Shown: piece after piece, positions 7,129 to 59,220 of the stretch
Position numbering within the stretch: the stretch's first letter is position 1
Layout of the letters: each line of letters begins with the position of its first letter
The notes under the pieces: model-generated
The model's input: only the letters and a program-made list of their open reading frames with translations
What the model was told of the DNA's origin: nothing
The model's database searches: none
Position numbers and translations under genes: made by a program
Virus record (IMG/VR): IMGVR_UViG_3300017527_000512
Coordinates: 100,541 to 164,540 of that record
DNA from: a virus
Length of the DNA stretch: 64,000 nucleotides
Reading direction: 5' to 3' (one strand)

Positions 7129-8196
7129 ATGGAAAGCAATTTAACTTCATTATTTAAGAAAACAAACGAGATGCCGCCAGCACAGGCGCCAGCACAGGCG
7201 CCAGCACAGGCACCGCCAGCACAGGCACCGCCAGCACAGGCTGTTTCTACAACAGCACCGCCAGCACAGGCGCCAGCACAGGCTGTTTCTACAACAGCAC
7301 CGCCAGCACAGGCGCCAGCACAGGCTGTTTCTACAACAGCACCGCCAGCGAGGGAGAGTCATATATCTACAGGTATTCAGGTAAATAATCCTATTCAATC
7401 AGCTCCTTCAATGCAGTCCTCAGTGCCATCAAAACCAGCACCATCGGCTTCTAAAGGAACTACTATGTCTTTTATGACGAAGATTAAAGATCCTTTACCT
7501 AAGTATTCTCCTATTAAAGGAAGATATGATTTAATTTCTTTAGTAAAGTATGATTTTATAGTTAAGAATACCGTTTTCTCTACTCATTTAAGGAAGAGTA
7601 TTGAAGAATTAGGTGTTATTACAGAGCAGTATTATGGATCTTCAAAGCCTCGTTATGGTGTAGTAGTTCTAAGATATTCGGCTATTGATGATAGTTACCA
7701 GCCTCTGTCTGAGAGTTATGAATTAGAAGCTGTTATTGTAGGCCAGAATCAAGCAAAACAGTTACAGAATTTTGTTACTGGTTTTGACCCAGGTACAAAG
7801 AGTATGTATCCTCGTTATGTTGATGTAGTAACAACTCATGCAAATGGCATGTACCCTACTCCTTCTTTTGAACAGGTTTTAGTACAGCAAGATAATTCAG
7901 CTTATTGGTTGAATTTTAGTAATCGTGCTGAGATAGAACAGAAGATAGAAGAGAAATGGGCTCACTTATCAGATATGGTAGCTAAATCCTATTCTAAAGA
8001 ACAGTTTTTAAATATGATGAAGAACTACGGAAGTAATGACCAGCAGTATGGTCAACAGTCGGGAGGGATGCCTAATTTTAATAATGCATCAAAAACTCCT
8101 GGTGGTCAGGGTAATGCCACAGCATTTCCTCAAGGAGGCAATCCTCCTCAAGGCGGTGGTTCTCCTTTTAACGCAGGTAACCCAAGTAATTTTTAA
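7129..8196 (+). CDS. low-complexity-flanked protein, possible DNA-metabolism factor
   Basis: 355 residues in three parts: an N-terminal Pro/Ala/Gln repeat region (residues about 15-75, built from the unit PPAQAPAQAVSTTA), a folded middle (about 115-285), and a Gly/Gln/Asn/Pro-rich tail ending in NPSNF. A folded core with a disordered Gly/Gln tail recalls single-stranded-DNA-binding proteins, but the acidic terminal tip of those is absent. It lies between the HU-like and RuvC-like genes. No family recognised. Confidence 0.5.
   Translation: MESNLTSLFKKTNEMPPAQAPAQAPAQAPPAQAPPAQAVSTTAPPAQAPAQAVSTTAPPAQAPAQAVSTTAPPARESHISTGIQVNNPIQSAPSMQSSVPSKPAPSASKGTTMSFMTKIKDPLPKYSPIKGRYDLISLVKYDFIVKNTVFSTHLRKSIEELGVITEQYYGSSKPRYGVVVLRYSAIDDSYQPLSESYELEAVIVGQNQAKQLQNFVTGFDPGTKSMYPRYVDVVTTHANGMYPTPSFEQVLVQQDNSAYWLNFSNRAEIEQKIEEKWAHLSDMVAKSYSKEQFLNMMKNYGSNDQQYGQQSGGMPNFNNASKTPGGQGNATAFPQGGNPPQGGGSPFNAGNPSNF
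7210..7338 (+). repeat. 42-nt tandem repeat coding for a 14-residue unit
   Basis: Two exact 42-nt copies at 7255-7296 and 7297-7338, preceded by a related 45-nt copy from 7210. Each encodes APPAQAPAQAVSTT in phase. Length change by slippage would stay in frame (42 = 3 x 14) and alter only the length of the disordered arm. Confidence 0.85.
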
Positions 8197-8202
8197 TATA
8201 GA

Positions 8203-8232
8203 GCAGATGCAGAAATGATACTCTTCATCTGC
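8203..8232 (+). terminator. intergenic hairpin, possible terminator
   Basis: GCAGATG (8203-8209) pairs with CATCTGC (8226-8232) in the gap between two genes, followed by CCATTTGTT. The stem is 7 bp and the T-run is weak, so terminator function is tentative. Confidence 0.35.
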
Positions 8233-8252
8233 CCATTTGTTATGGGGATTTT

Positions 8253-8945
8253 ATGATAGTAGTTGGTGTGGACCAGTCGAGGAGACATTCTGGAGTCTCA
8301 ATTTTTCATTATAAAAATATAGAAGAATATAAAGTATATAGTTTTACCTCAAATACGGATACTAATGATTTTTCTAAAGTAAATGAAGTTTTATTTTGCT
8401 ATAATAATTTTGTTTCTCAATTTGAGAGAGTAGTGAAGAGTTTTGGAATTTGGGAAGAGTTTCTTGCAGATGAAGAGAAATATCTAGGTATTGAGGCTCC
8501 CTTAGAGTCAGTAGCTTATGCAGGCAAGAAGTTTTCAAAGTATAGAGGTACTAATGTTACTTCTAATAATACTTTGGCTCAGCTTTTTATTTTGATTTTA
8601 ACCTTCTTTTTGAAGAAAGGTTTCAAGTGTTTGCAATTTCACCCAAATTATACTAGAGGATTCTTCGGAGGCAATAGGAATACAGGCAAGAAAGCATCTT
8701 TAGACAAGGGAAAAGAGTGGAAAGAATTGTTAGGAGATAAATGGATTCCATATAATTCACGATCTCCTATAAATAATCATGTTTCTGAGTCAATGCTGTT
8801 TGTTTATTTATCTGTGATGCTTGTGGATGTTAATCATTCATGTATTCCCAAAGATGATTTTTACTCATTATTGAAGTGGGCCAGAGCGTGGATGAATGCT
8901 GTTGATTCATGGTATATTAATTTCATTCCAGAAAATTTTAATTAG
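8253..8945 (+). CDS. RuvC-like Holliday-junction resolvase/nuclease
   Basis: 230 residues. Starts MIVVGVDQSRRHSG, the RNase-H-fold first strand with the catalytic Asp followed by S and G as in RuvC (G-x-D-x-S-x-x-x-x-G). A second acidic residue appears in YLGIEAPLE (about residue 76) and HVSESMLF near 175 can supply the C-terminal acid. RuvC-type enzymes cut four-way junctions during recombination and packaging. Placement directly before the RecA-like gene supports the call. Longer than bacterial RuvC (about 170), as in several phage relatives. Confidence 0.6.
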   Translation: MIVVGVDQSRRHSGVSIFHYKNIEEYKVYSFTSNTDTNDFSKVNEVLFCYNNFVSQFERVVKSFGIWEEFLADEEKYLGIEAPLESVAYAGKKFSKYRGTNVTSNNTLAQLFILILTFFLKKGFKCLQFHPNYTRGFFGGNRNTGKKASLDKGKEWKELLGDKWIPYNSRSPINNHVSESMLFVYLSVMLVDVNHSCIPKDDFYSLLKWARAWMNAVDSWYINFIPENFN

Positions 8946-8953
8946 GATATTTT

Positions 8954-10576
8954 ATGTCAGAGTTAGGTAATTTAATGACCGCAATAAATAGTTCAGATCC
9001 TTCAAATGAAAAACCTAAAGAAGAAAAGAAAGAGGGAAATGCGAAAGCATTAAAAGAAGAATTTACTTTAGATATTTCTAAAGTATTGGAAGAAGATAAG
9101 CTAAACACATCGAATAGTGATTCCGCACCTGTTAGCGATAATCCTATGTTGTCTATGAAACCTGAGGTAGATCCAGAAGAAGAATCAGAGGATAGTATAC
9201 CTCTAGGAGGTAGACAAGCAGCTCTTTATGAGAAAGCTGCAGAGAAAGCAAAGAAAGTAAAAGGAGACAATATGAAGAAAGAGAAGGATAAAGAAAGTTC
9301 CTTCCCTCTGACTTATAAAAAGGTTAATTCAGCTGCAGGCCTTAGAAAGGCTTCCCCTATTATTAAGAAATTCAGTCATTATTCAACAGGATCTTTGGCT
9401 ATCGACAGTGTAACTAAAGGCGGATGGCCTAGTCCACTAATTATTGAATTATCATCAGACGAAGGTGTAGGAAAAACATCTTTACTTCTTGATGCAGCCA
9501 AGAGAATGACTTTAGTTTATGGCGAATATGTTTTAATTTTGGATTACGAGCGAGGTATTCAGTATGACTACCTCGAGCAGTTAGGAATCCCTTTTGCAGA
9601 TCTATCATATACAGAAGAGGAAGAAGCAAAGATAAGAGAGACTAAAGAAGGTAAGGAAAGAGAGACTTTAAAAGAACTTATCTATAAAGACAAACTTGAC
9701 TCTATTGTAGCTTCTAAGAAAGCAGTAGTTTTCATATTCTGGCCATCTTCATTTGAGGAAGGAGAAGACATTATTCATTTTCTTAATAAGATTTTAATTA
9801 AGCCTGTTAAGATGATAGCTATAGACTCCTATGCTTCAATGCTTCCAGCTGCTGATTTAGAATCAGCAGGTATGATGACGATGGGCTCTGTCGGATCTTA
9901 TTTCTTAAAGAAGATGAATACTTTAAACTCTATATGGAACAGTTTTTGTTTAGTTATTAATCACATTCGCGTAGACGTATCTCGCATGATGTGGGATAAG
10001 AGAAGACCTAGCTATCTTCCACCTCCAGAAAAGACTTACTCGGATGGAACAATGAAATATTTAGCTCAGCTTAGAGTTAAATTGAAGAGAGGTGAGGTTA
10101 TTACCGAGGATGTTTATATTCCTTCGATGAATACTTCAAAGAAGATTAAAGTTTGTCATGAAGCAATATTTAATCCAGAGAAACAGAAGATGTTTCCTCC
10201 AGTACCTTGTAGATTTTACATTTCGTATGGAAAAGGTATTGATAACCTTATGTCTATCTTAGACTTAGGTTTATACTCTGGAATTATTAAACAGGTAGGA
10301 GGAGCTTATCAGATTAATAGAGATTGGGCTCCTAAAGTCGAACGAAAGGTTCCAGGAAAAGGATTAACAGAAGTCCCTATGTCTCTAGTAGGCAAATCTG
10401 GATTTAAACAGTTTATGAGGGAGAATAAAACTGTTCTTACTTCCTTGGTAGGAGAGCTTAAAGAGAAAGGTCTGTTAGAATATACAGATGCTTTATTAGA
10501 AATTGATGAGAGATACGAGGCAGACACTGACACATTTAATGCTCCTACAGAACTGAATGTTGAAGATATCTTATAA
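8954..10576 (+). CDS. RecA/UvsX-like recombinase
   Basis: 540 residues. A Walker A-like loop SSDEGVGKTSLL lies near residue 165-175, preceded by FSHYSTGSLAIDSVTKGGWP, the typical RecA lead-in (T-G-x-x-x-L-D-x-x-x-G-G). YVLILDYERG follows, and a Walker B strand KMIAIDSYASMLP near residue 286. These support ATP-dependent strand exchange. The N-terminal 140 residues are a long charged, probably disordered extension absent from T4 UvsX and RecA (about 350-390 residues). It follows the RuvC-like gene by 8 nt. Confidence 0.8.
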   Translation: MSELGNLMTAINSSDPSNEKPKEEKKEGNAKALKEEFTLDISKVLEEDKLNTSNSDSAPVSDNPMLSMKPEVDPEEESEDSIPLGGRQAALYEKAAEKAKKVKGDNMKKEKDKESSFPLTYKKVNSAAGLRKASPIIKKFSHYSTGSLAIDSVTKGGWPSPLIIELSSDEGVGKTSLLLDAAKRMTLVYGEYVLILDYERGIQYDYLEQLGIPFADLSYTEEEEAKIRETKEGKERETLKELIYKDKLDSIVASKKAVVFIFWPSSFEEGEDIIHFLNKILIKPVKMIAIDSYASMLPAADLESAGMMTMGSVGSYFLKKMNTLNSIWNSFCLVINHIRVDVSRMMWDKRRPSYLPPPEKTYSDGTMKYLAQLRVKLKRGEVITEDVYIPSMNTSKKIKVCHEAIFNPEKQKMFPPVPCRFYISYGKGIDNLMSILDLGLYSGIIKQVGGAYQINRDWAPKVERKVPGKGLTEVPMSLVGKSGFKQFMRENKTVLTSLVGELKEKGLLEYTDALLEIDERYEADTDTFNAPTELNVEDIL

Positions 10577-50578: not shown

Positions 50579-51460
50579 ATGTATAAATCATCATACCAAG
50601 AATTTAGTTCTATTATCAATAGATTTTTCCCTGAAAGAGTTCCAGCATATAATAGTAGTTCGTTATTTATAGTTCCAGAAATTACTAATATTCAAAAAGA
50701 AGAGCCGGCTTACGAAATCGGATTACCTTTCCCTGAAACACTTATTGTTGAGAAGTATATCGACAATTTATCAAACCCTGTATTAACTGAGGACAGCTTT
50801 TCTGCTTATTATATGAGAGCATTGTCTCCAGAAGAGATACTTATATTAGAGAATATCTCAGAAGTTATGAATAATCCTGTATATTTTGAGATAACGTTAT
50901 GTCTTGCAGAGAGCATAGGGAGTATGATAGGTTTATTTGATTTATGTTCTCCTAAAGAGAAGAGCAGAATAATCCCTCTCCAATATGAAATGTACTACAG
51001 AGATTCTGATAGAAACTATAAAGTAAGAAAATCTCCTTTACTTTCTTCATCGTCTCCTAATATTGATGAGGGTTCTATAGGGTCCTTCAATGCTAATGTA
51101 AGTGATTTAGTATGGCATTTAAGATACTTATACGGCCCAGCTAAGTGGATAGTCTCCTGTAACCCTTTGAATGTTAAAAGAAGAAAACGAGATAAGAAGA
51201 TGATTAACCTTCAATCACGTCCTACCTTTAATCTCTTATCTCTTCCAGAGATTAGAAAACGATATAATTTAGCTAAGAAAGATTCACCTTCATCCCAATT
51301 ACCCGTTCCTAGATATATTAGAGGTCATAACCGTAGATTAATGTCTGATTATTACAAACTCGAGAATAGAGGAAAGATAATCACTGTCGATTCTGTTTGG
51401 ACAGGCCCTAACGAAGCATCTTATGACGGATGCAAGTATATCGTTCATTATGATAAGTAG
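50579..51460 (+). CDS. hypothetical protein
   Basis: 293 residues, unrecognised. Acidic and Pro-containing N-terminal half, basic region (NVKRRKRDKK) near residue 198. Its own transcript is suggested by the promoter-like motif directly upstream. Could be structural or regulatory. Confidence 0.5.
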   Translation: MYKSSYQEFSSIINRFFPERVPAYNSSSLFIVPEITNIQKEEPAYEIGLPFPETLIVEKYIDNLSNPVLTEDSFSAYYMRALSPEEILILENISEVMNNPVYFEITLCLAESIGSMIGLFDLCSPKEKSRIIPLQYEMYYRDSDRNYKVRKSPLLSSSSPNIDEGSIGSFNANVSDLVWHLRYLYGPAKWIVSCNPLNVKRRKRDKKMINLQSRPTFNLLSLPEIRKRYNLAKKDSPSSQLPVPRYIRGHNRRLMSDYYKLENRGKIITVDSVWTGPNEASYDGCKYIVHYDK

Positions 51461-51513
51461 TGCTACCTCCTTTATTTAATATAAATATTATTAATAATAT
51501 CAAAGGATTTGAA

Positions 51514-52488
51514 ATGAATGATCTAGTTACAGACTTATTAAAATCGTTATCCAATTTAAGTGCTCCCTATTTCATAGGGGCACATTATTCAAGTGAACCT
51601 TCAATCTTAAACTCTATTGCAAGAGCTAAGAGGGATGGTGTATCAACTTATCAAATAATGTTAGGCCCTGTTCAGTCATGGTTCCCCTCCAAGTTTGATA
51701 AAGATACTATACATGAATTCCGTACTCATGTTGATGGATTAAGAATATTTGCCCATGCTCCCTTTTACATTAATCTATGCTCAGCAAAGGAACAACATCG
51801 TATCTTATCCTACAAAGGTGTTATTGCCCATTTATATCTAGCAGAGAAATTAGGTATAGAAGGTGTTAATATTCATATAGGGTCAGCGGGTAAAGAAGCT
51901 ACTACTGAAGAAGCGAGAGCTAAGGTAGATGATTCTATATTAAAGATATTTGAATCGTATTCAGGATCTGTTAAACTTATTTTTGAAAACGCTGCAGGAG
52001 ACGGAACACGTATAGGATCTAATATAGTAGAACTAGCAAAGCTATCTAGGGGTGTAAATAAATATTTAGGTCGAGATGCTACTGGAATATGTATTGATAC
52101 AGCGCACGCATTTGCAGCTGGCTATGACGTAACCACGGAAGAGTTCGTTCGGGAAGTATATTACGAAGTAAATGATGTCTTATCACTAGTTCACTTAAAT
52201 GATGTAGAACCAACAGTATGCAAGCTAGGCAATAAGAAAGATCGTCATGCAGGTATCGGAAGAGAAGGAGGTCTTGGCCTCTCAAATATTCTTCGACTGA
52301 TTCAGGTATTCAAATATGTCCCGATGATCTTAGAAAGAAGATCTGATGAGGGAATCGACAATGATTACAATGTTCTACGTCAGTTTGTATCAGGAGCGGA
52401 TGCCACTAACATTGATTTAGGCACTCCCGAAGATAACACTCCGGCTCCTCGTAAGAAAGCAAACAGACCTTTTAAAGTAATCAACTAA
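51514..52488 (+). CDS. nfo: endonuclease IV (AP endonuclease)
   Basis: 324 residues of the Nfo/TIM-barrel family: YFIGAHYSSEPSILNSI, YQIMLGPVQSW, AHAPFYINLCS, EGVNIHIGSAG, LIFENAAGDG (metal Glu), GICIDTAHAFAAGYD (metal Asp and His), LVHLNDVEP and DRHAGIGREGGLG. Three zinc ions cut DNA 5' to abasic sites. ATG 51514 is chosen because it begins the family's N-terminal strand after AAAGGATT. With the MutM-like and pyrimidine-dimer enzymes it completes base-excision repair in this phage. Confidence 0.9.
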   Translation: MNDLVTDLLKSLSNLSAPYFIGAHYSSEPSILNSIARAKRDGVSTYQIMLGPVQSWFPSKFDKDTIHEFRTHVDGLRIFAHAPFYINLCSAKEQHRILSYKGVIAHLYLAEKLGIEGVNIHIGSAGKEATTEEARAKVDDSILKIFESYSGSVKLIFENAAGDGTRIGSNIVELAKLSRGVNKYLGRDATGICIDTAHAFAAGYDVTTEEFVREVYYEVNDVLSLVHLNDVEPTVCKLGNKKDRHAGIGREGGLGLSNILRLIQVFKYVPMILERRSDEGIDNDYNVLRQFVSGADATNIDLGTPEDNTPAPRKKANRPFKVIN

Positions 52489-53386: not shown

Positions 53387-53743
53387 ATGAGAATGTGGAG
53401 GGTAAACCCTAAAATTTTATGTATTCAGCACCTTCTAGGAGAGCATTTTGAGATTCATAAACATCGCCATAATTTTGTAAAGATGCATAATATATCGGGA
53501 AGAATAAGACCTGTTACTCAGATAGAACCGGATGCGATGCAGTCTCGTCATGATCCTCTTGTAGAGGAGTTAATCTTAAGAGGAGTTAATCATAAGTCAC
53601 CTTATGAGCAACCATCTTTAGAATATCTATCAGATGATTTGCGTTATGCCAAGGTAGATAGACTATTATCCCTACGTGACCTCTTATCAAGATGCTCTAA
53701 GTGTAAAGATATGTATTTAAAATTAGTAGATAAGCAGACGTAG
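53387..53743 (+). CDS. pyrimidine-dimer DNA glycosylase (DenV-like)
   Basis: 118 residues matching the Pyr_excise family: MRMWRVNPKILCIQHLLGE, HFEIHKHRHN, then QSRHDPLVEEL and NHKSPYEQPSLEYL. T4 endonuclease V (138 residues) uses its N-terminal Thr to remove UV-induced dimers and nick the strand; relatives like this start M-R-x-W. AAAGGAGAG precedes ATG 53387. Forms a repair set with endonuclease IV. Confidence 0.8.
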   Translation: MRMWRVNPKILCIQHLLGEHFEIHKHRHNFVKMHNISGRIRPVTQIEPDAMQSRHDPLVEELILRGVNHKSPYEQPSLEYLSDDLRYAKVDRLLSLRDLLSRCSKCKDMYLKLVDKQT

Positions 53744-53789
53744 GCGGATGTTTTTAATATTCAAAAAGGACTCTTGTTTAGTTTGAGAA

Positions 53790-53853
53790 ATTAACGGGTA
53801 TCCAAGAACTGATAGTAGGAGAAATTAATAATAAGCTCTCCAACCCATTAAAA
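53790..53853 (+). repeat. dispersed intergenic element, copy E
   Basis: ATTAACGGGTATCC, AAGAACTGATAGTAGGAGA, ending TCTCCAACCCATTAA. Outer stem TTAA-GGGT with ACCC-TTAA and inner stem GGAGA with TCTCC; the base changes relative to copies C and D keep the pairs (for example GGAGA/TCTCC versus GGAGAA/TTCTCT). Lies before the gene at 53875. Confidence 0.8.
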
Positions 53854-53874
53854 TATTATATAAAAGAGGATATT

Positions 53875-54021
53875 ATGTGTAATTATTCAGATACAATTAG
53901 AAAATGCCCTGTATGTCATTGGCAGGGTATGATATTCTGTGAAGAAGGAAACGAAGGTCCTTATGATCAAGACAGGTTTATTTGTTTAAACTGTACAAAC
54001 ACTGAAAATGTAGAAGATTGA
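53875..54021 (+). CDS. 48-residue zinc-ribbon mini-protein
   Basis: CPVCHWQG near residue 11 and CLNC near residue 38, a zinc-ribbon layout, with acidic linkers. AGAGGAT precedes the ATG, and element E lies directly upstream. Its stop overlaps the promoter-like motif of the large RNA locus. Function unknown. Confidence 0.55.
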   Translation: MCNYSDTIRKCPVCHWQGMIFCEEGNEGPYDQDRFICLNCTNTENVED

Positions 54022-54022
54022 G

Positions 54023-54053
54023 TGTTATAAAATAAAACCTTAATTTATATATT
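54023..54053 (+). promoter_or_regulatory. bipartite promoter-like motif upstream of the RNA locus
   Basis: TGTTATAA (54023-54030), exactly 13 nt, TTTATATATT (54044-54053). The first stem of the RNA locus begins 5 nt downstream at 54058, the distance expected if transcription starts just after the second box. Confidence 0.65.
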
Positions 54054-54627
54054 AAGCATAGCATCGCAGAATATGGAAGTCTCAATTCCATTACAGAAGC
54101 TTAATTAACTTCTGAATGGTTGAATCTTAGGTGATTACGTAATGTGAGACATCTACATATGCGGGATGCTATACTTACCTCTCTCAGATGATACCACTGC
54201 ACTAGCAAGTCACTCTCTGTGAAACGGCGAAGAGAAAGAGGGTAACAGTAAGTAATTCCCTACTAGGGTGATTCCTAGCTTATCATTTATTTGATACTCT
54301 TCAAAGCCTTTTATCCTGTAAGGTTGTATAGATATATGGGTCAGAGTAAATTCATTTATTCTGCAAATACCTCTCCCTAGGTTTGTATCATAACAACAGG
54401 AGATGGTTCTCTGCCATGCCAGTAACATTAGTTACTGAGCGAAAGAGCCTGAGACGGAAGGCATTACAAGAATCCGTCATTGATTTATTGATACTCTCAA
54501 TTTCGCCTGCATAGGGCAGGGTCTCCGTTGAGAGATTAGTATCTCGGGTTTCGGCAAAGCTCGTTAGAAGTCGCCATGGTAAGGCTTCAAGTTTGCCCCG
54601 GTTTATTTTAAGTATGTTAAAGAGTGA

Positions 54628-54692
54628 GATTGTCTTTGGAGAATAGAATGTTATTTACATTTCTATTTGGGTTCGATCCCCTTCAATCTTAA
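54628..54692 (+). tRNA. tRNA-like segment, truncated D-arm
   Basis: GAGATTG pairs with CAATCTT (7 bp, one G-U) to form an acceptor stem; a T-loop TTCGATC is flanked by GGG/CCC; GAATG/CATTT makes an anticodon-like stem with loop TTATTTA; the D-arm is only TCT-TTGG-AGA. Total about 65 nt. The T-stem has mismatches and the anticodon ATT is odd, so it may be a degenerate tRNA or a tRNA-like module of the larger RNA. Confidence 0.35.
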
Positions 54693-54783
54693 TAGATATT
54701 TTGCAGGATATCTTCACTTCTAGGATTGATAGCGAGATGCATATAATAGTGAATAAGTAGAGAAGCACTGACTATTATATTCT

Positions 54784-54882
54784 ATCGGCAGAGAAAGAGA
54801 GGAACGTCTTTCTTGTAGGTTATGTCCGTAAAGCATGCCCTTTTATCTAAAAGGAGAGATGCCGGTTAGAATCCGGACCGAT
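54784..54882 (+). other. tRNA-like segment with altered T-loop
   Basis: CCGG-TTAGAAT-CCGG at 54862-54876 mimics a T-arm (position 56 is A instead of C), and ATCGG at 54784 can pair with CCGAT at 54878. The middle (a 7-bp AGAAAGA/TCTTTCT hairpin and CCTTT/AAAGG) does not fit a standard cloverleaf. Confidence 0.25.
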
Positions 54883-54951
54883 CCAAGATTATCCATCTCT
54901 TGTGTCCATGGTCTAATGTTAAGACGCTCCTCCTTTATGTATTATATTATC

Positions 54952-55103
54952 GCAGAATGGTTATTGCTACAGATTTAATCCGTAAGGCTCGACGGGGTCG
55001 AGAGGATGAGTTCTCAGATGTAGAGATACATTTTCGAATGTAATATCTGCAGTAAATAAGCCTAAAATTGAGATCATGTGAGGTTCAATTCCTCACTTCT
55101 GCA
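54952..55103 (+). other. tRNA-like acceptor and T-arm around an enlarged core
   Basis: GCAGAA (54952-54957) pairs with TTCTGC (55097-55102), stacked directly on a 6-bp T-arm GTGAGG-TTCAATT-CCTCAC with a canonical T-loop, followed by A as discriminator. TCTCA/TGAGA could be the anticodon stem, but its loop is over 50 nt and contains a TTCG hairpin; the D region is also about 50 nt with a CTCGAC/GTCGAG hairpin. So 3' end like a tRNA, core not. Could be an interrupted tRNA or a tRNA-like structure. Confidence 0.4.
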
Positions 55104-55946
55104 AATAGGTAATTAGGGTAGGCAGGCCTTGGAGTCGCCATCCTTTAATAAGTAGAATTGACACTCTAATTGTTGTATGGTTTAGCTCGGTAATAGAGTT
55201 AAATACCTTTCGTTAGAGATAAATGAGGCAGGTTCTTTTAGTGTAAAAACAAGCCGTTTTTATTACCTATAAAATCCTAACGGACTTAAACTTGCAAGAC
55301 TGTTCACCAAGTTTAAACGAAATTAGGTGTCTCCCTTGATTAAGAGGTTGGATATCGAATGCTAGAGAAGCCTGGTTATTTACCTGAGTCGTAATAGCTA
55401 CTAGATAAAACTCTGAAAAGGATAAGAGATAATTATTATAATAAGACAGTGATAGTAGAGGAATCTATTATACTTAGTACGATGGTAGCGTTTGAAGAGG
55501 TGTGAGTCCTTCGATTTCTTAGACCAGAGACTTATTAATAGCGTAACTCTGACAGTATTCAAACGGAATTAGTTCTGTATAGGACATTTGAATTCTATAA
55601 TTTATAACCGGGACAATACAGAAACATCTTTATCCAACTTTGTTATTGAGGCGATAAACGATAGCCCCACTCCCAATTTCAATAACTAATTCATGTGCCG
55701 GAATGATGGACGGCCAGTATACTATGCGGAATTAGAACCTCATGGTTTTGAAAGTTTATTCCTCAAGAGGAATGGCTCGGAAGGATAGGTCGGGATGAGC
55801 AATCCTTACAATAACTATAATTCGGTTCAAGTAAATAAATACCTGGTTCAAATAGCTAACCCAACAGTATTTATGAAATGGCGTCGGAGCACCAGAAACT
55901 TTCTATTGAGTAAAGATAACGAGTAAGACTTAGGCTACCGTAGGAA

Positions 55947-56303
55947 ATGCCGGTATATGCGATTGATCCAATAAAAGCTTTAAGTACAATTTTACTTGCC
56001 TTGAAAAATATCCGGAAGAGAAGCATTGTTTCTCGGGGCGGAATAGTATTGATCTATTTAGGATTCTTTATGCAAGAGGATGATTCATTCAGATTAGATA
56101 TGTACAAATACAGAACAAAGTTCGGTGTGACAGTTTATCCTCCACCTCCGATAGTTTTCTTCTCAGATGGACTTTCCTCTTCTGATCTAGCAGAGAAGCC
56201 TACGTCTCCTAGGTTGATTTCCTCATTTATGTCACACTTCTACAGCCTAATCTCTTATGTCAAGAACAAATTGTACAGAATTTTAAAATGTAAAAGGAAA
56301 TAA
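55947..56303 (+). CDS. hypothetical protein
   Basis: 118 residues with a hydrophobic stretch near residues 35-45 and a basic C-terminus (KNKLYRILKCKRK). ATG 55947 follows TAGGA at the very end of the RNA locus, whose last hairpin overlaps the start; translation might be influenced by that fold. Unrecognised. Confidence 0.4.
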   Translation: MPVYAIDPIKALSTILLALKNIRKRSIVSRGGIVLIYLGFFMQEDDSFRLDMYKYRTKFGVTVYPPPPIVFFSDGLSSSDLAEKPTSPRLISSFMSHFYSLISYVKNKLYRILKCKRK

Positions 56304-56305
56304 TT

Positions 56306-56701
56306 ATGTATTCAGAGAAAGTTAGGGAATTTACTAAAGCATGTTGTGATGGAGACGTTCCGGAGAAACCAATATTACTTTCAGAAGAAAAGGTTTCTTT
56401 TATTAAGAATATGGTTAATGATGAAATGCAAGAGTTAGCCGAAGCAGGTAATATAACTGAACAAACTGATGCTTTAGTCGATGCAATATATTATATATGT
56501 GACACAGCAGCCCGACATGGTATGAACCTTGATCCACTGTTTGAAATTGTTCACCGAGCTAATATGCAGAAAGTCGTTGATGGCAAGGTCATCCGTAGAC
56601 AAGACGGAAAGATAATGAAACCAGATACCTGGCAAGACCCCGAACCATTGTTACTAGAAGAAACAGCGAGACAGGAAAGAGAAGGGAGTTTCAATGGCTA
56701 A
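56306..56701 (+). CDS. all-alpha NTP pyrophosphohydrolase (MazG/PRA-PH-like)
   Basis: 131 residues. MVNDEMQELAEAGN provides the E-x-x-E metal motif, DALVDAIYYICD the second acidic D-x-x-D motif, and IVHRANMQKVVDG with KIMKPDTWQDPEP matches the tail of phage and bacterial HisE/MazG-like proteins. Such enzymes hydrolyse nucleoside triphosphates to monophosphates, removing damaged or signalling nucleotides. AAAAGGAAA precedes the start. Confidence 0.75.
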   Translation: MYSEKVREFTKACCDGDVPEKPILLSEEKVSFIKNMVNDEMQELAEAGNITEQTDALVDAIYYICDTAARHGMNLDPLFEIVHRANMQKVVDGKVIRRQDGKIMKPDTWQDPEPLLLEETARQEREGSFNG

Positions 56702-56936
56702 TAAAAGATTATTAATAGAAGCGGCAGAAAGATTTATTTACAAATGCGAGATAAATGTTGCCCGAAGTAAAGAATCTTATAAGATGTTTAAAGAGGCTCT
56801 AGATGCTTCAGAAGTTGATAATACCTCTAATCGCCTTAAATGTTTTGATTGTTATACTGAATGGAAGATATCTGATATGGTAGGTACGCAACGTTGCCCA
56901 AGATGTAATGGTAGATATATTAAATATCAGACATGA
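56694..56936 (+). CDS. small zinc-ribbon protein
   Basis: 80 residues: a helical N-terminus and a C-terminal CFDCYTEW ... CPRCNGRY zinc ribbon. Overlaps the pyrophosphohydrolase gene by 8 nt and the following deformylase frame by 4 nt. Function unknown. Confidence 0.6.
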   Translation: MANKRLLIEAAERFIYKCEINVARSKESYKMFKEALDASEVDNTSNRLKCFDCYTEWKISDMVGTQRCPRCNGRYIKYQT

Positions 56937-57454
56937 CTTATAAAGGATAATTTAGGGGAATTAATTTCACGAATGCTTTATTATATACAAAGATACCTAA
57001 GATTACAGACAATAAGGAAGCTTTTAAATCATCTATTCAACTTTTAAAATTTATTAAGAACAAGGCTGCGTATGCATTAAGTGCTAATCAGGTCGGATTA
57101 AACCATCGTTTCTTTGTTGCACGTAAATTCAAATCTCTTAAACTACCTACAGATATTTTCTTTAATCCTGCTTATGTAGGATTTCATGATAAAGAGTTAG
57201 TTCGCGAAGGCTGCTTATCATATCCAGGAGAGTCATTTATTATTCTTAGATATAAAGAAATTCAATTACAGTATGAGGATCCTCGTGATAAGACATCTAG
57301 CTTAGTTAAGCTTGAAGGATTACCTGCAGTAATTGCTCAGCACGAAATAGATCATTTAAACGGAATATCAGACCGTGATTTAAATATTTCAGAATCAGAT
57401 TTAAGTAAATATTTTTTTATGTTCAAGTCCGACGAAGGGCCTCAAAGGAGTTAA
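56933..57454 (+). pseudogene. def: peptide deformylase with in-frame TAA at codon 6
   Basis: The frame from ATG 56933 reads MTYKG, TAA (56948), FRGINFTNALLYTKIPK and then the three deformylase motifs: YALSANQVGLN (G-x-G-x-A-A-x-Q-x-G-like), REGCLSYPG (EGCLS) and AQHEIDHLNG (H-E-x-x-D-H), ending 57452. Apart from the early stop all 168 downstream codons are open. Deformylase removes the formyl group from new proteins; phage copies are known. A non-ATG start after the stop (for example near AGGGGAATT) is possible, so the enzyme may still be made. Confidence 0.8.
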
Positions 57455-57455
57455 T

Positions 57456-57677
57456 ATGTCACAATGGAACAAATGGGAGCCTCTAAGCTATTATACATAT
57501 TCTGATGCAGAGTATATAGTTATGGCTCGACGTAATAGAAAGTCTGGTTTAATCAAGTTTAAATCTATTAGAGTAAACGGAAACAATAGCCTTGTCAATG
57601 AGTCTAAAATTAGTCTTCCAAGGACTCTTATTGACTCTAAGAAGCAGTGGTACACTATCTGTGAAGCTAATTCTTAA
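57456..57677 (+). CDS. small basic protein
   Basis: 73 residues, basic, Trp/Tyr-rich (MSQWNKWEPLSYYTY). AAAGGAG before the ATG lies within the end of the deformylase frame. Unrecognised. Confidence 0.5.
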   Translation: MSQWNKWEPLSYYTYSDAEYIVMARRNRKSGLIKFKSIRVNGNNSLVNESKISLPRTLIDSKKQWYTICEANS

Positions 57678-57701
57678 TGCCTTTATTTGTATGTGAGTAT
57701 T

Positions 57702-58286
57702 ATGATAGACAATTTAGAACGAATATCTCCTTTACTATCTTTCGATTCGGAAGATGATTTTTATTTCTTACAAATTCTGCAGAGAAAGAAAGATAATCTA
57801 ACGCAGTCCTGCAGTGTCAGAGTAATTAAGGAATACTTCATTAATAATCTTAATTATCTTAATGAACATTACAATGAAATAAAGAAGTTATGCGTGATTT
57901 TCAATGCAAGAGCGGTAATAAATCTAAACAGAAGATCTTTTAGAAAGACTGCATTATCAAGCTTGTCTGAACTAGCTAAGCTTGTTTCTCAGGATTCCAA
58001 CTATAGAGCAGCCCGCCGAGTTTATGCATCCTCTTGTGGAAAGAAATCAAACGAGTCCTCTAAGAAGTGGATTGTTGATGTTGATAATTGTACGGACGCA
58101 AGTGATATGGAAGATTTAAAATCTTATTTATCTACATTAGCACCTGTAGGGGAGAAAGTATTATTAACTCTTCCGACAAAGTCAGGTTTCCATCTAATAA
58201 CAACTCCTTTTAGAGTAGATCATTTTAAGCGTGATTACGACCATGATATTCATAAAGATAATCCAGTGAATCTCTTTATCGCTTAG
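57702..58286 (+). CDS. phage protein with DxD and SGxH motifs
   Basis: 194 residues. LCVIFNARAVINLNRRSF near residue 70, WIVDVDN near 127 and TLPTKSGFHLITTPF near 160. The D-x-D strand followed by S-G-x-H recalls the first two motifs of archaeo-eukaryotic primase folds, but the third is not clear, so I only suggest a possible relation. ATG 57702 is chosen over one 15 nt upstream. Small proteins of this pattern occur in other phages. Confidence 0.5.
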   Translation: MIDNLERISPLLSFDSEDDFYFLQILQRKKDNLTQSCSVRVIKEYFINNLNYLNEHYNEIKKLCVIFNARAVINLNRRSFRKTALSSLSELAKLVSQDSNYRAARRVYASSCGKKSNESSKKWIVDVDNCTDASDMEDLKSYLSTLAPVGEKVLLTLPTKSGFHLITTPFRVDHFKRDYDHDIHKDNPVNLFIA

Positions 58287-58375
58287 GAATGTTATTTTTT
58301 GTAGTGATAGATTTTTACAGAAATTTAATATGAAGTTATCCAGAACCAGATCAAAATAATTTTAAGGAGTAATAA

Positions 58376-58764
58376 ATGTCTAATAATGAACGAATACTGA
58401 ATACGAGAGAGAAGACAACCTTTTTATAGAAATGTTAGAGGAAGAAACGGGAAAACGAGATCAATCATGTAATACTCCCGCACATGTTTCTGAAGAGGAT
58501 ACAAGATATCCTCGTGAGATGTCTGACGAAGATTTAGTTAAGTGTTATGAGCTTTTTGATAATTCTCCTCTTTTTGAGCGGGATAATTCAGGGAAACACG
58601 TGATTTATAAACCTATTGATTGGGTAAAGGATCCTTTTGCTTTTGAATTTAATATGGATTTGAATAAATTAAGATCTTTGGACATGTTCGGTAAATATGT
58701 TGGATGTACAGGCTTTGTAGATTTTGATATTTTTCATCGAAACATATCCGCCTTTCTTAGATAG
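58376..58764 (+). pseudogene. acidic-protein gene with N-terminal frameshift
   Basis: AAGGAG precedes ATG 58376 (MSNNE), but that frame closes at 58427. One added A in GAACG would join it to TNTEYEREDNLFIEMLEEET and the long open frame (ATG 58432) ending 58764. The second part contains DEDLVKCYELFDNSPLF. Either a frameshift mutation, an error, or translation starts only at 58432 (110 residues), which has no good ribosome-binding site. Confidence 0.45.
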
Positions 58765-58803
58765 ATTAGAATGTTATCTTATTTATAGTTCTAGGGAGAG
58801 TCT

Positions 58804-59220
58804 ATGTTAATAACTAGACATATATGTTTTACTCGAGATATCGGAGTCAATGGAAACCTCTTTGGAGGAAAACTACTCGAATGGGTAGATGAAGCAGCGG
58901 CAATCCATGCATCTCTTATTATCAAGGGGCTTAATGTAATCGCCAATATTTCAAATATTGCATTTAAGTATCCAGTTAAAGTAGGAGACATCTTGCAATT
59001 TCATTCTGAAGAAGTTTCTAAAGGAAATTCTTCTCTTAAGATTCACATTTGGGTTACTAAAGAAGCTAAGAGAGTCTGTGAGTGTGATGCCATCTTTGTT
59101 CATGTTGACCATAAAGGTCGATCAAAGAAGATTGACTGGAACAAAGAAGTTCTTGTTGGAGACAATTCTAAAGTTCTTCCTCGATGGAAAGCGGGTTACA
59201 CAGAATGGGAACGTAAATGA
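58804..59220 (+). CDS. acyl-CoA thioesterase-like hotdog protein
   Basis: 138 residues of the 4HBT hotdog fold: MLITRHICFTRDIGVNG, GGKLLEWVDEAAAIHASL (the central helix with its acidic residue), VIANISNIAFKYPVKVGD (the F/K-x-P-x-x-x-G-D signature), ILQFHSEEVSKGNSS and a strand series. Close in layout to the bacterial acyl-CoA thioesterases. Unusual in phages; may act on host lipid metabolism. GGGAG upstream. Overlaps the next gene by 4 nt. Confidence 0.8.
   Translation: MLITRHICFTRDIGVNGNLFGGKLLEWVDEAAAIHASLIIKGLNVIANISNIAFKYPVKVGDILQFHSEEVSKGNSSLKIHIWVTKEAKRVCECDAIFVHVDHKGRSKKIDWNKEVLVGDNSKVLPRWKAGYTEWERK

What the first reader, a model, noticed from the sequence alone, without database searches (positions are those of the whole stretch)
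54058..55945. A 1.9-kb densely structured noncoding RNA locus in a large phage
This is the only long stretch without a convincing gene on either strand, in a genome that is otherwise packed. Seen directly: more than 20 exact or near-exact stems, including long-range ones (54058-54065 with 54165-54172; ATAGGTAAT at about 55106 with ATTACCTAT at about 55261; CCTAA with TTAGG near 55.28-55.33 kb), TTCG- and GGAA-capped hairpins, and stacked internal stems. A bipartite promoter-like motif ends 5 nt before the first stem. Known large phage RNAs of this kind (GOLLD, ROOL) are noncoding, structured, hundreds of nucleotides long and often near tRNAs; this locus is larger or may hold several RNAs. Class membership is not established.
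Basis: partly seen in the sequence, partly recalled or inferred. Interest (0 to 1): 0.88.

Follow-up and report, generated by a model that had tools for sequence, protein, structure and literature searches.

The report
Phage noncoding RNA with tRNA-like parts
A large, uncultured phage carries a 2-kilobase stretch that codes for no protein, has its own promoter and looks like an unknown structured RNA gene with tRNA-like pieces in its middle, but no relative was found, so its structure and function are unproven.

Summary
The noncoding stretch is real: 54,022-56,071, about 2.05 kb, the longest gene-free stretch in this 164.5-kb phage record. Coding signal there is at shuffled level, and no Pfam or PHROG match turns up in six frames. 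The promoter-like motif ending 5 nt before the first stem is also real: TGTTAYA-N14-TTTATATAT occurs 7 times at identical spacing, all on +, and here it has no gene behind it for 1.9 kb. Excess folding stability is confined to 54,058 to about 55,300 (z = -4.3 over 1,243 nt; coding controls of that length reach -3.4; the 5' 640 nt give -5.2 against a control minimum of -2.4). The 3' 770 nt show none.

It is not GOLLD or ROOL by Rfam, but that negative is weak: Rfam also misses an intron-split tmRNA I found elsewhere in the genome. New here: the middle third holds three tandem tRNA-like modules. Models built from two of them retrieve the phage's own tRNAs first (5 of 5 and 2 of 2 best non-self hits). 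No homologue was found in the collections searched, so covariation could not be tested. Best reading: a promoter-driven, probably tRNA-processed RNA gene of unknown class.

The parts
53786..53867 (+). Upstream copy of a roughly 80-nt dispersed intergenic repeat (core GGGTACNNNAGAACTNACAGTAG, here with 2 mismatches); 12 copies in the record, all on +; lies just before a 48-aa Cys-rich ORF, not part of the RNA itself
54023..54052 (+). Promoter: TGTTATA - 14 nt - TTTATATAT (sigma-70-like spacing: TGTTAT, 17 nt, TATATA); predicted start of transcription about 54058
   Evidence: ties for third place in the record with a matrix built without it; the best 17 sites are all on +
54058..54172 (+). 5' domain closed by ATAGCATC/GATGCTAT, with inner hairpins
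54178..54620 (+). Densely paired part with the highest stability (54058-54700, z = -5.2), incl. helices 54408-54415/54787-54794, 54445-54452/54544-54551 and 54494-54501/54527-54534
54626..54691 (+). tRNA-like module 1 (no D arm): GAGATTG/CAATCTT ends, long hairpin, T arm GGGTTCGATCCCC
   Evidence: Rfam tRNA, 18.4 bits, below cut-off 29; (ARWEN mode)
54723..54888 (+). tRNA-like module 2: GGATTGA/CCGATCC ends, T arm CCGGTTAGAATCCGG, about 90-nt extra body
   Evidence: the two best non-self hits of its model are tRNA-Cys and tRNA-Phe of this phage, E = 0.26 and 1.2
54952..55103 (+). tRNA-like module 3: GCAGAA/TTCTGC ends stacked on T arm GTGAGGTTCAATTCCTCAC, about 80-nt extra body with a UUCG-capped hairpin
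   Evidence: the five best non-self hits of its model in 221 kb are tRNA genes of this phage, best E = 0.003
55105..55299 (+). Last paired part: ATAGGTAAT/ATTACCTAT helix and, alternatively, long-range helices 54811-54820/55290-55299 and 54824-54829/55280-55285 that would close a 489-nt domain
55300..56071 (+). Noncoding remainder without excess folding stability; may be 3' tail, leader of the next genes, or degenerate DNA
56072..56303 (+). Next gene (77 aa from the better start; listed as 55947-56303), followed by a MazG/PRA-PH-like nucleotide pyrophosphohydrolase gene at 56306-56701

Best explanation
54,058 to about 55,300 is a phage RNA gene (or a tandem set of small RNA genes) transcribed from its own phage-type promoter. 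The 5' half (54,058-54,620) is a compact structured domain. The middle (54,626-55,103) is an array of three tRNA-like modules that keep the acceptor stem and T arm but carry other hairpins in place of the D and anticodon arms. The likely way of working (inferred) is that tRNA enzymes recognise the acceptor/T-arm stacks and cut the transcript into stable RNAs, which then act as tRNA mimics or scaffolds: binding tRNA-handling proteins, the ribosome, or the phage's own Ro60. Shown: no coding signal, promoter motif, tRNA-likeness of modules 2 and 3, stability of the 5' domain. Inferred: transcription, processing, function.
For: No coding signal or protein match. A promoter with fixed 14-nt spacing, 7 copies on + and none on -, with no gene behind this copy for 1.9 kb. 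Folding excess. T-arm consensus within 1 mismatch at 54670, 54864 and 55082, all on +, while about 4 are expected in the whole window on both strands. Covariance models made from modules 3 and 2 alone retrieve the phage's own tRNAs as their best non-self matches, 5 of 5 and 2 of 2. The same phage already makes tRNA-derived RNAs with inserts next to a Ro60 gene and carries a gene that reads as a CCA-adding enzyme.
Against: No homologue, so no covariation. Acceptor pairing of the modules is not significant by itself when any upstream partner is allowed. The lowest-energy fold of the whole stretch prefers long-range helices that break module 2. Coding controls reach z = -3.4 at this length. The minus strand folds as well as the plus strand. 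Module 2's model hits tRNAs only weakly (E = 0.26 and 1.2).
Confidence: 0.4

Rival explanations
1. One large ornate RNA of about 1.24 kb (54,058-55,300) that folds as a unit and may self-associate, working like GOLLD or ROOL; the T arms are tertiary-contact motifs (T-loops), not processing signals.
For: Lowest-energy fold has three domains closed by long-range helices of high probability: 54178-84/54796-802, 54408-15/54787-94, 54811-20/55290-99; z = -4.3 for the unit; size and phage setting fit.
Against: No Rfam match; more than 54 kb from the nearest listed tRNA; long-range helices are always found in a single-sequence fold; modules 2 and 3 resemble whole tRNA ends, not T-loops alone.
Confidence: 0.25
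2. Known RNA genes (for example tRNAs) interrupted by introns, as in the tmRNA gene at L013:12473-13032 of the same phage, so that search programs miss them.
For: The tmRNA split by a T-loop insert is missed by ARAGORN and by Rfam and found once the two flanks are joined. A possible group I P7 pairing, CAGAGACTTAT 55525 / AAGGATAGGTC 55783, was hit once, against 0.05 expected in shuffles.
Against: ARAGORN with introns allowed finds nothing; inserts of the modules (about 80-90 nt) are too short for group I introns; no tRNA-like D or anticodon arms; the P7 pattern was chosen after seeing the site and does not recover the tmRNA intron itself; no Intron_gpI match here.
Confidence: 0.15
3. Decayed DNA: worn-out tRNA genes and spacer, not a functional RNA.
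For: Three incomplete tRNA-like units in a row; no folding excess in 55,300-56,071; phage tRNA arrays turn over fast (general knowledge).
Against: Intact promoter among the best in the record; T arms and acceptor ends still pair; folding excess in the 5' part; G+C above other spacers; no protein remnant.
Confidence: 0.12
4. Long structured 5' leader of the downstream genes (56,072 onward), acting in cis.
For: All genes on +; no terminator-like site after 54,278 and no strong promoter of this class before 56,072.
Against: 2 kb is far beyond usual leaders; the other promoter copies of this class mostly lie 24-50 nt before their ORF.
Confidence: 0.08

Closest known systems
GOLLD and ROOL RNAs (Rfam; cryo-EM in PMC12286853)
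   Same: Large (659 nt ROOL; many GOLLD over 800 nt), structured, noncoding, encoded by phages; GOLLD may include a tRNA
   Different: No sequence or covariance-model match; not near the tRNA island; carries several incomplete tRNA-like modules instead of a normal tRNA
Bacterial and phage Y RNAs with tRNA-like part (YrlA, RF02553), partner of Ro60/Rsr
   Same: tRNA-like module with extra hairpins; the same phage has a Ro60 gene and two tRNA-like RNAs with inserts beside it (L013:7735-7988)
   Different: The 54-55 kb locus is far from the Ro60 gene and was not matched by RF02553 in the low-threshold scan
tmRNA (RF00023)
   Same: Acceptor/T-arm end joined to a large non-tRNA body, like modules 2 and 3
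   Different: No tmRNA found here by ARAGORN or Rfam; the phage's real tmRNA is elsewhere
tRNA (RF00005)
   Same: Acceptor stem and T arm; models of modules 2 and 3 retrieve tRNAs
   Different: No D arm, no anticodon arm with 7-nt loop; below the family cut-off

Membership tests
GOLLD / ROOL | Match to the Rfam covariance model | tested here: not met
   No match at gathering score nor at E up to 10 in 53,700-56,000
GOLLD / ROOL | Noncoding, hundreds of nt, structured, in a phage | tested here: met
GOLLD / ROOL | Near tRNA genes (usual, not obligatory) | tested here: not met
   Listed tRNAs lie at record positions 82-100 kb; this locus is at about 154.6-156.6 kb
GOLLD / ROOL | Homo-oligomeric RNA cage | not testable with these tools
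   Needs cryo-EM or native gels
tRNA (RF00005) | Full cloverleaf above gathering score of 29 bits | tested here: not met
   Best 18.4 bits, 54626-54691; ARAGORN 0 tRNAs in the window
tRNA-like RNA (works like the tRNA acceptor/T-arm end) | Acceptor stem stacked on a T arm with a consensus T-loop | tested here: met
   Module 3; module 2 weaker:
Y RNA (YrlA) | Match to RF02553 or adjacency to a Ro60 gene | tested here: not met
   Not for this locus. L013:7800-7916 matches YrlA with 39.9 bits, below cut-off 69, beside the Ro60 gene
Group I intron (RF00028) | Match to model, or P7 with exons that join | tested here: inconclusive
   No model match here, but the model also misses the tmRNA intron; one post hoc P7 candidate
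RNase P RNA (RF00010) | Match to the Rfam model | tested here: not met
   other RNase P models were covered only

The most novel reading that the evidence does not exclude
A new class of large phage RNA that combines a big 5' structured domain with a tandem array of tRNA-mimic modules lacking D and anticodon arms, released by tRNA processing enzymes, perhaps to occupy Ro60, tRNA nucleases or the ribosome during infection.
Probability: 0.2. Interest if true: 0.8.

Novelty: new variant of a known kind. Interest (0 to 1): 0.5.

Why it matters
Large phage RNAs such as GOLLD and ROOL are known but have no known function. A phage RNA gene in which tRNA-like modules lie next to a large structured domain would link these RNAs to tRNA handling and give a direct test: cleavage by RNase P and binding by tRNA proteins. 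It also shows a limit of present tools: the same phage hides a tmRNA that ARAGORN and Rfam miss because it is interrupted.

Tried and rejected
Homologue search. Proteins 56306, 51460 (AP endonuclease; alone and as an alignment) and 8954 (UvsX) gave none in viral contigs. The dispersed repeat found one distant relative, G001, plus two single hits judged chance or unrelated. A Ro60 alignment gave 80 loci; 50 of those records, and G001 separately, gave no convincing match to the RNA by DNA, and 49 of them plus G001 none with model R2. Two exact 16-17-mers hit only unrelated coding DNA. No DNA match in phages or plasmids.

Rejected. Internal duplication of the RNA. Decayed protein genes. RNase P RNA: resemblance of short motifs by eye, but no RF00010 match. 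Ordinary intron-bearing tRNAs. A group I intron at 55.3-55.9 kb is kept only as a weak rival. Modules as acceptor-paired units on pairing alone: not significant. Short-window folding: no excess over coding DNA at 300 nt.

Full report
SETTING. The window is the right end (100,541-164,540) of a 164,540-base virus record, a large, uncultured phage. It carries a family A DNA polymerase, a DnaB-like helicase, NrdD, UvsX and many tRNAs, and its sheath-like protein has only distant relatives. All genes read around the locus are on the + strand.

IS IT NONCODING? Yes. No + strand ORF of 60 aa or more lies between 53,744 and 55,946, the longest such gap in the record; on the minus strand a 72-aa ORF lies inside it. 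A frame-specific Markov score trained on 70 long ORFs falls to the level of shuffled DNA from about 53.99 to 56.0 kb and recovers in the flanking genes. Six frames read through stops match nothing convincing in Pfam or PHROGs. The next gene more likely starts at 56,072, where there is a proper ribosome site, than at 55,947, so the gap is about 2.05 kb.

IS IT TRANSCRIBED? Probably, on +. TTTATATAT is enriched in + strand spacers. With an upstream TGTTAYA it forms a fixed-spacing promoter motif, 7 copies at exactly 14 nt, none on the minus strand. A matrix built from the six other copies puts the site at 54,023 in a tie for third place in the record; the best 17 sites are all on +. Most other TTTATATAT sites in spacers lie 24-50 nt before an ORF, while this one has none for 1.9 kb.

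IS IT STRUCTURED? In part. At 650 nt, 54,058-54,700 has z = -5.2 and 54,700-55,350 z = -2.4, whereas 14 coding stretches have mean -0.8 and minimum -2.4; the phage's tmRNA locus, a true structured RNA, has -2.45. 54,058-55,300 as a whole has z = -4.3, but three coding controls of that length gave -0.2, -2.3 and -3.4, so this alone is not decisive. 55,300-56,071 shows no excess (z = +1.4). The count of perfect stems is only slightly above shuffles. At 300 nt the region does not differ from coding DNA.

WHAT IS IN IT? T-arm consensus sequences lie at 54,670, 54,864 and 55,082, all on + and about 200 nt apart, where about 4 are expected by chance in the whole 64-kb window on both strands. Each ends a unit whose outer ends can pair. 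To test tRNA-likeness without choosing by eye, covariance models were built from module 3 and from module 2 alone and run over 221 kb (this phage and a distant relative). The five best non-self matches of module 3 are tRNA genes of this phage (best E = 0.003; alignment with tRNA-Val). The two best of module 2 are tRNA-Cys and tRNA-Phe (E = 0.26 and 1.2). A model from the 5' domain matches only itself. Module 1 is the weak Rfam tRNA match (18.4 bits). None has normal D and anticodon arms. A caution: acceptor pairing alone is not significant when partners up to 340 nt away are allowed, and the minimum-energy fold of the whole stretch offers long-range helices that exclude module 2. These are two rival architectures.

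WHY THE RFAM NEGATIVE IS WEAK. Rfam finds nothing. But at L013:12473-13032 I found a phage tmRNA interrupted in the T loop by a 236-nt insert. T stem GCGGG/CCCGC and acceptor GGGGATG/CATCTCC pair across it; the upstream flank ends in U, which can pair with G in P1, and the insert ends in G, as in group I introns. With the two flanks joined, ARAGORN reports a tmRNA with tag EETQELMAA. ARAGORN and Rfam both miss the interrupted gene. Group I introns in the tmRNA T loop are known from bacteria (PMC11915505). The same blindness could apply to other RNAs in this genome, so intron-split RNAs remain a rival here, although ARAGORN with introns allowed finds none.

HOMOLOGUES. All eight scans of viral contigs and the one of genome contigs were used; none gave a homologue of the RNA, and DNA searches of phages, plasmids and 50 Ro60-bearing phage records were also empty or chance-level. 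Covariation, the test that would settle structure, could not be done.

VERDICT. A real noncoding locus, very likely an RNA gene, structured over its first 1.2 kb, with tRNA-like modules. It works most like an RNA with tRNA-like ends; it is not shown to be a member of GOLLD, ROOL, YrlA, tmRNA or tRNA families.

Noticed in passing
L013:12473-13032 (record 92,473-93,032): Phage tmRNA gene interrupted in the T loop by a 236-nt insert with group I intron signs (U before the insert, G at its end, P1 UCGAU/GUCGA, S-like AAGGAATAGTCC); joined flanks give ARAGORN tmRNA, tag EETQELMAA. Missed by ARAGORN and Rfam.
   Followed up: partly
L013:7735-8117 and 8118-9710 (record 87,735-89,710): Ro60 (TROVE + vWA) gene preceded by two tRNA-like RNAs with about 61-nt inserts in the anticodon arm sharing CACATTACYGCAAGGTACG, and a third structured stretch: a Y RNA / Ro60 locus.
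   Followed up: partly
Record positions 1445, 6188, 28674, 49772, 67103, 81298, 86567, 104806, 118301, 125641, 148009, 154336 (+): Dispersed intergenic element AAATTAACAGGGTACCCAAGAACTCACAGTAG followed by an AT-rich stretch, 12 copies, all on +; also 2 copies in IMGVR_UViG_3300017527_000423. Promoter or leader element of unknown role.
   Followed up: partly
Window sites 13550, 30950, 50528, 54023; L013 9978, 13746, 16394: Fixed-spacing phage promoter TGTTAYA-N14-TTTATATAT on + only.
   Followed up: yes
L011:16841-19150 (record 56,841-59,150): PAS-GGDEF-EAL protein (cyclic-di-GMP type) encoded by a phage.
   Followed up: no
L009:7620-9335, L009:14196-15947, L010:16253-17944: Three related large homing endonuclease genes (phrog_3339).
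   Followed up: no
L014:1956-2030 (record about 99,957-100,029): tRNA that ARAGORN reads with an 8-nt anticodon loop (cttc); possible four-base decoding or an odd loop.
   Followed up: no
L013:13791-14975: Reads as a CCA-adding enzyme gene just after the tRNA-Val, tmRNA and tRNA-Gln cluster (identified by eye from the N-terminus).
   Followed up: no
window 53387-53743 and 51460-52488: Pyrimidine dimer DNA glycosylase and an AP endonuclease close together: a small phage UV-repair set.
   Followed up: no
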